NCBI RefSeq assembly: GCF_947623445.1
Contig: NC_135242.1
Coordinates: forward strand, 21,886,001-21,950,000
Direction: 5' to 3'
Source of the DNA: Clavelina lepadiformis
Lineage: Eukaryota > Chordata > Ascidiacea > Aplousobranchia > Clavelinidae
DNA length: 64,000 bases
Shown here: piece by piece, positions 29,701 through 37,354 of the stretch
Position numbering within the stretch: the stretch's first letter is position 1
How the letters are laid out: every line of letters begins with the position of its first letter
Translations under genes and position numbers: made by a program
Notes under the pieces: model-generated
What the model was told of the DNA's origin: nothing
Databases searched by the model: none
What the model saw: only the letters and a program-made list of their open reading frames with translations

Positions 29701-32700
29701 ATGAAGTATACCGCAGTAATTGTGCTTATACCGTTGGTCATATGCAATGCGCTAGCCCAAAATTCTGGTAAGACTTTCTTAATACCTATTTACAGAGCAT
29801 TTCAAATTTGATAAATCAATAATAGTAACTAATAGAAACGAATGCTATATTGCTGTACGTTAGCGTTAGACAATGTTTGTGACGCAATCATCGGTATATA
29901 GCTTATGCCTGTGTTGTAACTTGTAGTGATTTATATTATAAGAGAGATTTATATTTATATTATAGTGATACATATTTTTTCAACCCTGGCTTTATGCTAT
30001 ACTGTATATAATCCTATTATGGTATAGTTTATAGTGTTGACTCTTTCTTCGTACACTGGCAAAGTGAAAATTTATCCTGCTGCTTTTCACAGATGGAACC
30101 GTCGTGGAGCAGTTTAAGGAAAACCAAGATGACGTAATGAGTATTCTAAATCTACCGAACGACACCGTATATTTGAATCCTCCACCGTAAGTGAACCTAT
30201 AACTCCATTATCGTGGTTTTATGGCATGTAGGCCACATTTACAACAGGTCACCTAAAACAGTGGCAAGTAGGCTACAAAATACACATACAGCATATAAGC
30301 TACATTTTCTGCAGTTATTTGCATAAGATTATTCATCGAAGCTAGAACCGATGCAGTGTCATAAATACCCTGGTGGTGTGGTGATATTTAAAAACTTAGG
30401 GCCACTGTGTATGCTAATACTAATTGTTGCCACTTTGAAGGTTCGACTACGCAGAGGCGCTTGCCAAGAGTTTATTATTCTACGAGGCGCAAAGATCAGG
30501 AAGGTTACCGGATAATCAACGCGTCAAATGGAGAGGAGATTCCGCGCTAGACGATGGGCTAGATGATGTTGGAATCGATTTAAGTGGAGGATACTACGAC
30601 GGTACGATAAGAAGTTTCAGCTGGACTTCAACTATAGGATAACTTAAACACTTAACCATATATCTAGGACAGCACTTTTAATAAATTACAAGTTAGGGAT
30701 TCATCACATGCATACACCTATAGAACTATAAAGCTTTCACGATGCCTGCGTAAAAACCAGCAGCGATACATTCCCGAGTTATTGCATTAATTCAATGATT
30801 CATTCTGTTCGTTGCGTGTTAGGTGGAGGGTACGTCAAGTATGGCTACACGATGGCGTACACGGCAACAGTGCTATCATGGGGAGTCATACGGTACAGGC
30901 GGGCTTATGAGATTCTTGGTCAATTGGATTACGTATTGGCCGCCATAAAATGGGCCACTGATTATTTTATAAAATGTCATCCGAAAGAAGACGTCTTTTA
31001 TGGTCAAGTAAGTCCGGTATAACCGTGGTGTACAGAAAGTTCCTCTCAGATGTAAATAGGCCTGTTTGCATACAGGTTGGAGACAAGAGCACAGACAACG
31101 CTTACTTTGGGCGACCGGAAACAATGAATTATAAACGAAGAGCTTACAGCATCACCAAAGATAGACCAGGTATAGCGGCAGATTTTACATCGGCCCTTTT
31201 AAATGTACAAGAATATCATAATGGACACAAGCCAGCTTGGCAAATCTTACTAGAAAACCTTGAACCCAAATATGGCGAACTTTAGCGAAGTTTTAGTTAA
31301 TGGAGTAATATATAGCTGCCGTTAGCAAGCAAGATTAAAGTACATACCAAGTGTGAAAGTCGATTCAAAATACAGTATACCAAGCTGAGCCAAGTCAACA
31401 TCAGCATATAGGGATCACATTTATTACTATAGTTAAACTAACAGGTTTTGGGCGTTAACCTTTGTCCTTCCAAAAAGGATAAGTATAAATTCAAACTATG
31501 GTGAAAATAACGAAGTAAATATTGGTACCCCATATATCGAAGTAATTGCACTTAAAAATGGAAAACGATTAAGCGTTGCAGACAAAGATAGCAAACAATT
31601 AATATTATTAACACATAGATCAATTTTTATCCACAACGAGATCAAAAGATCGTTATTGTCAATGACTACTTGTGCCAAACACAAAAGCTTTTGACCAAGC
31701 TGAAAATCAGACCACAAAAATATTAAAACATTTCAAAACAATTTTTGAAGGTAGCGACTTGGCGGGAGAGACAGCAGCCGCAATGGCAGCAGCTGCCATT
31801 GTTTTCGAACCTACCAGTCCAGCGTATGCCGAGAAATTGCTAGCACACGCAAAGGAACTGTACGAATTTGCAATAACGGACAAGGGCATATACAGTACAT
31901 CTATTACAGCTGCCAGAGAAGCCTACCAGTAAGGCAATAATGTATAATTTGTATAACATTAGTGTATAATTCACACGCCTATCAATATGAAGATATGTTA
32001 GGTGTTTTTGAAAATGTTAAATCTGCAAAACTAAAACATCGAGAACTTACAGCCTTAACTTAAAATTATAGTCTAAATGTTAAACAGCGTTTTAATATGA
32101 CATCTGAAAGTAATAGGAACCACAGAAGCTTTCCTTGTGCTGATGCTTTCTTACAACTTTGGCAGATCAGACAAATACGTTGACGACCTCGCCTGGGCTG
32201 GAGCGTGGCTATACAAAACAACTGGCGACAAAAGCTACCTGACGGAAGCGGAAATATATTATGGGCGAGGCAAACTAAAAAACTTGGTGAGTTATCTTCG
32301 GCTTTTAATTTTCAAGAATAAAGGTTACACATGCTGCGGCGGTTTCGTCTTAATCAAAGCAAAAAGTTGCGTGTGCTCTGTACACCTTCTAAAGTTGTCT
32401 TAACTACGTTCAGGCTACAGAGTTTTCCTGGAGAGACAAACGAGCCGGAGTACAAATTCTTTTGGCAGAACTGACTAAGAAACCGACGTACAGAACATCT
32501 GCCAAATGGTAATTAGGCACAAGGCCACAGCTAGCGTGAAAAATCGCGGCGAAATTTAACGAACTATTCGTTTCATAACATCGCTTACTGACAGGTTTTG
32601 TGACTACGCACAAAAAGAGAAGATAAACAACTTCAACAGCCAGTCGAAACACACACCGAGAGGTCTCCTATATGTCCAAGAGTGGGGTTCGCTCCGTTAT

Positions 32701-35700: not shown

Positions 35701-37354
35701 AGAAACATTTCCTTTTTACTTTAAGCCTTTCTTTCTAAATGCAACGTTGCACATGGAACAGAAAAGACAATTGACCATACTTCAGACCCGTCATTTATAC
35801 GCAGATCCTCCGGGTACATTGACGAGCTGGCCTGGGCTGCAACGTGGCTGTATCAACATACCAGGAGTCCGTTTTACTTCAAGGAAGCAACAGGGTATTA
35901 CGATCAGCTGCCCACCGACCCCAAAGACTTTTCATGGGACAATAAAACAGTATGAAAACTTTAATGCACTGCAGTTATCGCCGACATTATTAAACTGGGT
36001 ATCTTGTACCTTGGCTAAATTTTCCAAAACGTAATTTTATGTGAACTTACATCATTATGGGAGTCAATATTATAAGCGCCACGATTTTTAATAAGACCAT
36101 GACAGGGACAATTTAGAGTCAGGATTGCAAAAATATACCTGACCTTAATCCTTGATGGACCTTTTATGTCATTATGTTCTGTCTATTCCGTTATTTATAT
36201 AGTTCGTCTCTACTTAGTTTTCTTGTTTAGAAATGGTGAGTCAAAAAGCCTTTTTTGATTAGCATGAAATTTCGCAGTCTATAAATTTGCATAATTCCTC
36301 TTTGCACAGGTCGGAGTGCAACTGTTACTTGGCGCGGCTCACACAGGATCTAAAGACATCGCAAAATTCTGCGACTGGTTGCTAACATCAGCTCGAAGAA
36401 CAGAAGGTGGCCTACTTTTCCTCAACGATAAATACCCGGCAAAATATGCAGGTAAATGGACCGAACTCTATAATACAATCTACATATGATACTCTGTAAC
36501 TCACTAACACTAGTATAAATCCTCCAACTTCGCGGTTTATGATCACAGCAAATGCAGCCTTCATACTCATAATGGCGTTCAAAAAATTTCCAAAACATCG
36601 CAACGCCCGACGCTGGCGCGATCTCGGAGTTCAACAGATCGAGTATTTGCTTGGAAACATAAATGACCAGAGTTTTATGATTGGATTTGGAGCGAAATCA
36701 CCCACTCAACCCTACCACAAGGCAAGCTCTTGTCCTTCGATGAACGAAACCTGCGGCCTGGGTTATAAAACACTAAACGTTCCAAACCCGCATGTAAGTG
36801 AAATTTAATAAGTATAATGACGTACTCTTCTAATTAAAATGTAAAAAATGGTTACTTCACAGAAGTTTTACGCTGCCCAAAACAAAAAGCTAGATTATGT
36901 AGAACGGTTAAACTAGAAGTTAAATTTCGCTTGTGGCGATTATAGCTATAACGTAAACGAAGGTTAAACACAGGGAAGACTAGATTAGAGTTATAACCGT
37001 GTGGGCTACATCGTAACTATATGTAAGTGACCTAGATTCTAGATTCTAGAACAATTACAGCTGAATACATGATATTTGCTGGTTGCATTGGTTCTGTCTT
37101 TAATTTTGCAGGTATTGTTTGGAGCTTTGGTCGGTGGACCAGATTTTGGTGACGAATATCAAGACTTACGTACAAATGAGAACCAAAACAGAGTGTCTTT
37201 GGACGCAAACGCTGGTTTCCAGTCAGCGCTGGCAGGGATCCAGCATTTGAAAATTAACAAACAATTGGGGAATTCGGCTGCTAGTGTAACACTATGCCCA
37301 ACTGTTTTCTTCGCTTTTTTGTCTGTTTACTTGTATTTCATGATTAACGCGTAA
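29701..37354 (+). CDS. Tandem GH9 (cellulase-family) protein, both domains catalytically impaired, probably GPI-anchored
   Basis: Twenty-one exons (29701-29767, 30093-30186, 30441-30601, 30823-31007, 31076-31169, 31751-31928, 32166-32286, 32414-32508, 32595-32768, 32997-33161, 33279-33386, 33630-33727, 33975-34077, 34256-34359, 34816-34993, 35210-35397, 35582-35696, 35805-35949, 36310-36451, 36549-36793, 37112-37354) join in frame to exactly 1000 residues. Signal peptide about 1-20. GH9 domain 1 about 53-500, linker [13 protein letters not shown] about 515-527, GH9 domain 2 about 530-965, hydrophobic C-terminus about 977-1000 after GNSAAS. Family framework is clear: [47 protein letters not shown]. 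The catalytic base Asp of DAGD is Gly in both (YYDGGGY, YYDGPGY). The catalytic acid Glu is Ser473 in domain 1 ([10 protein letters not shown]) and Arg947 in domain 2 ([10 protein letters not shown]). Shared phase-1 introns after YYD show internal duplication. Likely a non-hydrolytic cell-surface protein. Confidence 0.93.
33728..33974 (+). other. GC-AG intron in the GH9 linker
   Basis: The only donor that keeps frame between the two GH9 domains is GAAG|GCAAGT at 33727/33728, a GC donor with otherwise perfect consensus. The nearby GTACCT two bases on would shift the frame and meet a stop after about 20 codons. The acceptor is TTGTAG|TGACG. Confidence 0.8.
34409..34644. mobile_element. hAT-type MITE in a GH9-gene intron
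   Basis: The ends are CAGAGTCG... and ...CAACTCTG, flanked by ctaacaac (34401-34408) and ctaagaac (34645-34652), with one mismatch. The interior is full of GACTCGAG/GACTTGA words in both orientations. No ORF. It lies in the intron between 34360 and 34815. Confidence 0.75.

What the first reader, a model, noticed from the sequence alone, without database searches (positions are those of the whole stretch)
29701..37354. A tandem GH9 'pseudo-cellulase' with both catalytic residues lost in both domains
Seen: two full GH9 domains in one 1000-residue frame. The DAGD base Asp is Gly in both (YYDGGGY, YYDGPGY). The acid Glu of NEVAxDYNAGF is Ser in domain 1 and Arg in domain 2. These codons lie inside exons or beside junctions where no alternative splice choice restores them. 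Known: GH9 hydrolysis needs that Asp and Glu. Inferred: the protein is under selection for something else, since all 21 exons stay open. If the host is a tunicate, binding, spacing or sensing tunic cellulose is an obvious idea. Retained fold with parallel loss in both repeats suggests loss before, or soon after, the internal duplication.
Basis: partly seen in the sequence, partly recalled or inferred. Interest (0 to 1): 0.88.

Follow-up and report, generated by a model that had tools for sequence, protein, structure and literature searches.

The report
Sea squirt's conserved double-dead cellulase
A sea squirt gene encodes two linked cellulase domains that have both lost the residues needed for cutting but are kept in other sea squirts too, so the protein likely grips or senses a sugar chain, perhaps the animal's own cellulose, instead of cutting it.

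Summary
The window lies on contig C3 of the Clavelina lepadiformis genome. A 21-exon model (29701-37354, +) gives 1000 residues, identical to the public protein LOC143448311. Both GH9 domains keep the fold, but the base Asp is Gly in both and the acid Glu is Ser (domain 1) or Arg (domain 2). Two active-site His and one Arg are replaced too. No alternative splice restores the motif. Ciona intestinalis, C. savignyi, Styela and two unnamed proteins carry the same tandem: the acid is lost in 12 of 12 domains, always to Ser in domain 1, across a split dated at about 390 million years. Domain 1 is about as conserved as a working tunicate GH9 ortholog pair, and several replacement residues are fixed, so this is not decay. 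One correction: Styela domain 2 keeps the base Asp, so domain 2 most simply lost it after the duplication. In Clavelina, 7 of 13 GH9 domains read lack catalytic residues; 6 are intact. A signal-like start and a hydrophobic C-terminal tail predict an anchored protein outside the cell. The likely role is non-cutting glycan binding, perhaps of tunic cellulose; binding and expression site are untested.

The parts
29701..37354 (+). Whole coding gene, 21 exons, 1000 aa, tandem pseudo-GH9 (LOC143448311)
   Evidence: spliced model; 100% identical to P0001
29701..29767 (+). Exon 1, start codon and predicted signal peptide
   Evidence: 12-residue stretch at mean hydropathy 2.98 from residue 4; no dedicated signal-peptide program was run
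30442..33660 (+). GH9 domain 1 (residues 55-491, exons 3-12)
   Evidence: 53.4% identical to 1ks8
30828..30830 (+). Codon of Gly110 in the place of the catalytic base Asp (NtEgl D57, E4 D58), domain 1
33361..33363 (+). Codon of Ser473 in the place of the catalytic acid Glu (NtEgl E412, E4 E424), domain 1
   Evidence: Ser in 6 of 6 tandem proteins
33661..34027 (+). Pro/Thr-rich linker between the domains, holding GC-AG intron 12 (33728-33974)
   Evidence: low confidence in the model, residues 511-529
34028..37249 (+). GH9 domain 2 (residues 532-966, exons 13-21)
   Evidence: 42.3% identical to domain 1
34821..34823 (+). Codon of Gly585 in the place of the catalytic base Asp, domain 2
37190..37192 (+). 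Codon of Arg947 in the place of the catalytic acid Glu, domain 2
37301..37351 (+). Hydrophobic C-terminal tail (residues 984-1000), predicted GPI-type anchor signal
   Evidence: 15-residue stretch at mean hydropathy 2.09 from residue 984; 1.68 to 2.14 in the 5 tandem proteins with a complete C-terminus

Best explanation
This sea squirt gene encodes a two-domain GH9 protein that has lost the catalytic base and acid in both domains, and it likely works as a non-cutting glycan-binding protein that is predicted to sit on the outer face of the cell and would hold or sense a beta-glucan, possibly tunic cellulose. Shown: both domains are predicted by AlphaFold to keep the GH9 fold and keep most conserved residues, the losses cluster at the catalytic centre, and the dead form is found across ascidian orders. 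Also shown: the dead site is not drifting freely. In domain 1 the replacements Gly57 and Ser412 are fixed in 6 of 6 tandem proteins, and new aromatics at 359 and 364 are fixed in kind. Inferred: a signal-like start and a hydrophobic tail put the protein outside the cell on a (GPI-type) membrane anchor. Domain 1, which keeps the residues equivalent to E4 W313, R317, Y318, Y206 and an aromatic at Y429, would give one sugar-binding surface. Domain 2, which keeps W128 and Y206 but not W313, would give a second, different one. Two grips on one anchored chain would give avidity and a tether or sensor between epidermis and tunic.
For: Catalytic residues: acid lost in 12 of 12 and base in 10 of 12 domains of the six tandem tunicate proteins, while 227 of 245 other full-length GH9 domains in the capped lists of three searches keep D-D-E. 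Retention: 88 of 98 highly conserved GH9 positions kept in domain 1 and 77 of 98 in domain 2. Clustering: losses at 5 of 9 active-site against 5 of 89 other positions in domain 1 (p=0.0004), 6 of 9 against 15 of 89 in domain 2 (p=0.003). Fixed novelties: 10 positions of domain 1 are fixed (in residue or as aromatic) and rare in intact enzymes, 5 of the 10 in the three catalytic motifs (p=0.0004); in domain 2, 6 positions, 3 in the motifs (p=0.007). Constraint: Ciona-Styela domain 1 55.4% identical against 57.0% for an intact ortholog pair. Age: domain-1 and domain-2 clades each 100/99 and each spanning Styela, Ciona and Clavelina; the stolidobranch split is dated 389 +/- 32 Mya (PMC5899321, passages). 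Fold: AlphaFold mean pLDDT 82.4, target-normalised TM 0.97 to 1ks8. Anchor: hydrophobic tail in 5 of 5 tandem proteins with a complete C-terminus, Clavelina included. Subsite residues. Transcription: P0004 and P0006 are open for 989 and 1090 codons on contigs of only 3323 and 3533 bases, so those contigs are most likely spliced transcripts.
Against: No binding, activity, localisation or expression datum exists here. Losses include H125, H376 and R378 in both domains and W128 in domain 1, which recalled E4 structures put mostly on the glycone side, so the ligand may no longer be cellulose. No carbohydrate-binding module was found in the Clavelina protein. The anchor reading rests on hydropathy alone, and the start is not signal-like in every relative: best 12-residue hydropathy 2.98 Clavelina, 2.77 C. 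intestinalis, 1.69 P0006, 1.18 Styela, 0.11 P0004. Domain 2 is less constrained (43.3% Ciona-Styela). The nine active-site positions were chosen from recalled E4 roles, and two of them are the losses that define the case; without them domain 1 has 3 of 7 against 5 of 89. The model's pTM is 0.53, so the placing of the two domains is not reliable. Dead GH9 domains also turn up in animals not known to make cellulose.
Confidence: 0.5

Rival explanations
1. It binds a glycan, but not the animal's own cellulose: a surface lectin for algal or bacterial beta-glucans in feeding or immunity.
For: Residues at E4 H125, H376 and R378, and W128 in domain 1, are replaced, with fixed aromatics at 359 and 364, which suggests changed specificity; dead GH9 domains also occur in a pearl oyster, a hemichordate, a sea urchin and insects.
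Against: Among the proteins fetched, a tandem dead in both domains and shared between species was seen only in the tunicate family; one pearl oyster protein (P0022) comes near, with a partial first domain lacking the base and a dead second domain. No expression data.
Confidence: 0.22
2. It is a helper of cellulose synthesis: a non-cutting GH9 that guides nascent chains at the synthase or regulates active cellulases, in the manner of plant KORRIGAN or of the dead GH6 domain of tunicate CesA.
For: Tunicate CesA itself carries a GH6 domain lacking a catalytic Asp, and KORRIGAN is part of the plant synthase complex (PMC10334666, passages). Clavelina has GH9 domains with intact catalytic residues that it could regulate.
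Against: KORRIGAN is an active enzyme with an N-terminal membrane anchor (recalled); here the anchor-like stretch is C-terminal. No link to CesA was found: the window lies on C3 and the one GT2 (PF13641) match on C9.
Confidence: 0.15
3. It is still an enzyme with a different mechanism or substrate, using the kept Asp54 and another acid.
For: Asp54 is kept in 12 of 12 domains, and domain 2 of Styela and P0006 also keeps Asp57.
Against: Asp58 of E4 is the base by azide rescue (PMC4071793, passage), and the acid, two His and the Arg are replaced in both domains.
Confidence: 0.08
4. It is a decaying pseudogene.
For: Several active-site residues are lost.
Against: 21 exons open with canonical splice sites, dead relatives 49-58% identical in the best local alignment across orders, fixed replacements.
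Confidence: 0.02

Closest known systems
Animal GH9 endoglucanases, e.g. Nasutitermes NtEgl (PDB 1ks8)
   Same: Predicted fold (TM 0.97), 53.4% identity in domain 1, most conserved positions
   Different: Two domains in one chain; base, acid, two His and an Arg replaced; C-terminal anchor-like tail
Tunicate CesA C-terminal GH6 domain
   Same: A cellulase fold without a catalytic Asp in a cellulose-making animal (PMC10334666, passages)
   Different: Different GH family, fused to the synthase, horizontally acquired
Tunicate two-GH9 proteins of a second kind (Phallusia A0A6F9DI08, Styela LOC120336210, Clavelina L013)
   Same: First GH9 domain dead in all three
   Different: Second domain has intact residues in Phallusia and Clavelina; both Asp54 and Asp57 lost in domain 1; a CBM2 match was seen only in the related unnamed P0034 and below the curated cut-off
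Plant KORRIGAN GH9
   Different: Active, N-terminal anchor, single domain (recalled)
Beetle GH45 and pectin-degrading pseudo-enzymes
   Same: Plant cell wall glycosidases that lost catalytic residues or activity and were kept (GH45: PMC6509783, passages; pectinases: PMC6549527, search listing only)
   Different: Different families, horizontally acquired (GH45), tandem form not reported in what I saw

Membership tests
GH9 protein family (fold and sequence) | Pfam PF00759 match and GH9 barrel | tested here: met
   850.8 bits, two stretches; predicted model TM 0.97 to 1ks8
Active GH9 cellulase | Catalytic base Asp (E4 D58) | tested here: not met
   Gly in both domains
Active GH9 cellulase | Catalytic acid Glu (E4 E424) | tested here: not met
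   Ser and Arg
Active GH9 cellulase | His/Arg cluster (E4 H125, H376, R378; roles recalled) | tested here: not met
   N, F, E in domain 1; D, Y, K in domain 2
Active GH9 cellulase | Hydrolysis of cellulose | not testable with these tools
   needs protein
Conserved pseudo-enzyme | Catalytic residues lost and gene kept in several species | tested here: met
   six tandem proteins, 12 of 12 domains without the acid
Conserved pseudo-enzyme | Purifying selection measured as dN/dS | not testable with these tools
   only Clavelina DNA at hand; protein identity used instead
GPI-anchored surface protein | Signal peptide and hydrophobic C-terminal tail | tested here: inconclusive
   hydropathy only; tail in 5 of 5, start not signal-like in P0004
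KORRIGAN-type GH9 | N-terminal transmembrane anchor and active site (recalled) | tested here: not met
   C-terminal anchor-like tail and dead site; the N-terminal hydrophobic stretch is read as a signal peptide, not proven
Cellulose-binding protein | Binding to cellulose | not testable with these tools
   subsite residues only

The most novel reading that the evidence does not exclude
Tunicates turned their inherited cellulases into a family of non-cutting surface receptors and tethers for their own cellulose coat: a dead tandem kept since before the ascidian orders split, joined by several further dead GH9 lineages in the same genome, an animal counterpart of cell-wall sensing.
Probability: 0.3. 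Interest if true: 0.85.

Novelty: new variant of a known kind. Interest (0 to 1): 0.62.

Why it matters
Tunicates are described as the only animal group able to make cellulose directly (PMC10334666, abstract in the listing), and how their cells hold and read that coat is, to my knowledge, open. A conserved, likely surface-anchored GH9 that cannot cut is a concrete candidate for the link, and it is present in Ciona, where gene editing has been done (same paper, passage). The authors of PMC10986139 write that they are searching for cellulase genes expressed in the epidermis (passage). A list that separates intact from dead GH9s bears directly on that search. It also warns against annotation: public names call some of these proteins 'cellulase'.

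Tried and rejected
Assembly or splice error: rejected by identity to the public model, splice enumeration and orthologs. Neutral decay: rejected by ortholog conservation and fixed replacements. Loss of the base before the duplication in both domains: disfavoured by domain 2 of Styela and P0006 keeping it; an early loss plus a regain needs as many steps and is not excluded. Domains 1 and 2 as exclusive sisters: not settled. The first tree put other dead tunicate domains beside domain 2, with p-AU 0.38 for D1+D2 alone; without the active-site columns D1+D2 stand together at 90/59; in the tree with the Clavelina paralogs they are not resolved. Shared intron positions: 2 of the 9 introns in domain 1 match one of the 8 in domain 2 in place and phase; weak support for an old internal duplication. 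dN/dS: not possible. The GH6 search of the own genome rang in no control genome and says nothing. Ten ORFs around the gene gave only one Pfam hit, TMEM187, below its cut-off; no second GH9 was found in the window. A phage-collection search with exon 3 found nothing and is not informative for an animal gene. Literature: 10 searches; those on tunicate or dead GH9s listed no paper whose title or abstract start describes dead tunicate GH9s; most subscription journals are not in the library, and Davison and Blaxter 2005 was seen only as a reference. Two papers were searched for terms and held nothing on these proteins (PMC9308810; PMC6109156).

Rows left out: GH9 counts use only domains covering model positions 15 to 415 (260 domains in 241 of 246 proteins), from lists capped at 120 per search; the first tree used 62 of 169 domain rows; P0034, a long branch, was left out of the trees; one search dropped matches under 40 bits or with stops, its rows L009, L010 and L011 were under half filled, L009 and L018 are long branches, and its bootstrap had not settled.
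Full report
What is there. The window is G000:C3:21886001-21950000 of a 209-Mb assembly. The spliced protein from 29701-37354 is identical to LOC143448311 of Clavelina lepadiformis, whose genome note gives 210.1 Mb and a chromosome 3 of 25.74 Mb (PMC10884593, passages). The model has 21 exons and 1000 codons; 19 of 20 introns are GT-AG and intron 12 is GC-AG. 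Pfam reports GH9 in two stretches and nothing else at E 0.001. The two domains are 41-42% identical to each other. AlphaFold gives mean pLDDT 82.4 but pTM 0.53, so each domain is well modelled and their placing is not. Foldseek aligns one domain to termite 1ks8 at target TM 0.97, 1.5 A.

The active site. I used NtEgl numbering (D54, D57, H359, R361, E412), which falls on the expected residues of 1ks8, and E4 numbering (D55, D58, H125, H376, R378, E424). E4 subsite roles are recalled, except that PMC4071793 names D55, D58 and E424 as the catalytic centre and D58 as base (passages). Clavelina domain 1 reads D54 G57 F359 E361 S412; domain 2 reads D54 G57 Y359 K361 R412. H125 is also replaced in both. 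Domain 1 keeps W313, R317, Y318, Y206 and Y429 but not W128; domain 2 keeps W128, Y206 and Y318 but not W313, R317 or Y429. In the six tandem proteins W313, R317, Y318 and Y206 hold in 6 of 6 of domain 1, with Y or F at 429, and W128 and Y206 hold in 6 of 6 of domain 2. W209 and W256 are absent in both domains, as in NtEgl itself. So each domain keeps a different part of the cleft.

How unusual it is. Three protein searches, each listing at most 120, gave 246 proteins with 260 full-length GH9 domains. Outside the tunicate tandem family (nine entries, three of them alternative or partial Ciona models) 227 of 245 domains keep D54-D57-E412. The 18 exceptions include four conservative E-to-D changes, one fragment, and four domains of the other tunicate-type proteins P0012, P0017 and P0034. 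In the six tandem proteins (Clavelina, Ciona intestinalis, C. savignyi, Styela clava, and two unnamed) the acid is lost in 12 of 12 domains and the base in 10 of 12. The nearest case outside tunicates is pearl oyster P0022, with a partial first domain lacking the base and a dead second domain. The unnamed P0004 and P0006 are open for 989 and 1090 codons on contigs of 3323 and 3533 bases; a gene split like this one could not fit unspliced, so these are most likely transcript contigs.

It is kept, and its dead site is kept. Of 98 positions conserved in at least 93% of 145 intact domains, Clavelina domain 1 keeps 88 and domain 2 keeps 77. Losses concentrate in nine active-site positions that I chose from recalled roles (5 of 9 against 5 of 89; 6 of 9 against 15 of 89; p 0.0004 and 0.003); two of the nine define the case, and without them domain 1 shows 3 of 7. 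Between Ciona and Styela, domain 1 is 55.4% identical and domain 2 43.3%, against 57.0% for the intact pair Ciona endoglucanase 13 and Styela LOC120343563, and 52.2% for a Phallusia-Styela pair of which the Styela member has lost the acid. Ten positions of domain 1 are fixed, in residue or as aromatic, in 6 of 6 tandem proteins and rare in 227 intact domains, among them G55, G57, aromatic 359, aromatic 364 and S412; 5 of 10 fall in the three catalytic motifs, 33 of 429 columns (p=0.0004). In domain 2 it is 3 of 6 (p=0.007). A freely decaying site would not hold new residues fixed.

History. Domain 1 and domain 2 each form a clade at 100/99 that spans Styela, Clavelina and Ciona, so the tandem predates the split of stolidobranchs from the other ascidians, dated 389 +/- 32 Mya (PMC5899321, passages). 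Ala55 to Gly and the loss of H359 and E412 are seen in 12 of 12 domains and may predate the duplication. The base is kept in domain 2 of Styela and P0006, so its loss in domain 2 was most simply later and separate from that in domain 1. Whether domain 1 and domain 2 are exclusive sisters is unsettled.

The rest of the genome. Searching the own assembly with the GH9 model gave 69 exon-sized matches, a lower bound by the tool's own note. I took ten stretches, two of them overlapping, that cover the matches outside the window and read the catalytic positions by tblastn and by eye across splice joins. Intact at D54, D57 and E412: both genes of L012, L014, L015, L016/L017 and the second domain of L013. 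Dead: L009 (V54, D57, G412), L010 (N54, G57, R412), L011 (N54, G57, K412), L018 (I54, D57, Q412) and the first domain of L013 (I54, G57, A412). With the two domains of the window gene that is 7 dead and 6 intact of 13 domains read. Joins read by eye could be off by a codon, and no transcript was checked. On the tree with the active-site columns removed the label 'dead' needs 5 changes (bootstrap 5-7), of which well-supported branches force only 2, so catalysis was probably lost more than once.

Likely function. The start is signal-like in Clavelina and C. intestinalis, weaker in Styela and P0006 and not so in P0004; the end is a hydrophobic tail in 5 of 5 tandem proteins with a complete C-terminus, while the intact Ciona P0153 has none. 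This predicts an extracellular, membrane-anchored (GPI-type) protein. Retained cleft residues, tandem domains and a predicted anchor together point to a non-cutting binder of a beta-glucan. Tunic cellulose is the obvious ligand because CesA and Gh6 are expressed in the epidermis (PMC10334666 and PMC10986139, passages), but expression and binding of this protein are unknown. The chain 'dead and kept' is shown; 'outside and anchored' is predicted; 'binds cellulose' and 'tethers or senses' are inferred.

What is known. The calls found the dead GH6 domain of tunicate CesA, a remark that GH9 catalytic residues are not invariant, perhaps by sporadic loss of catalysis with binding kept (PMC4071793, passage), and beetle GH45 pseudo-enzymes (PMC6509783, passages). 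None of the ten literature searches listed a paper that, by title or abstract start, describes dead tunicate GH9s; the library lacks most subscription journals.

Noticed in passing
L009-L018 (own genome, C2, C3, C4, C5, C6, C7): Further GH9 genes in Clavelina; 5 of the 11 further domains read lack catalytic residues, probably by more than one loss.
   Followed up: partly
P0012 (Phallusia), P0017 (Styela), P0034 (unnamed), L013 (Clavelina): A second tunicate kind with a dead first GH9 domain; the second domain is intact in Phallusia and Clavelina but Styela has Lys for the acid Glu.
   Followed up: partly
P0022, P0045, P0089, P0188, P0203, P0229, P0245: Dead GH9 domains in a pearl oyster, a hemichordate, a sea urchin, two termites, a katydid and a cockroach; P0220, P0234 and P0238 (two ants and a wasp) have Asp for the acid Glu.
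   Followed up: no
33728-33974: Intron 12 uses a GC donor (gcaagtac).
   Followed up: no
31170-31282: The frame of exon 5 stays open for about 37 codons into intron 5 before a stop (frame listing).
   Followed up: no
130-617 (-); 44350-44592 (+): By eye, exons like a PI3-kinase catalytic part and a cold-shock/Y-box domain lie elsewhere in the window; not confirmed by a family search.
   Followed up: no
26765-26847 and 28276-28358 (+): Two tRNA-Ser(TGA) genes upstream of the GH9 gene, six predicted tRNAs in the window in all.
   Followed up: no
12010-12219: A 116-base unit in 1.8 copies at 100% match.
   Followed up: no
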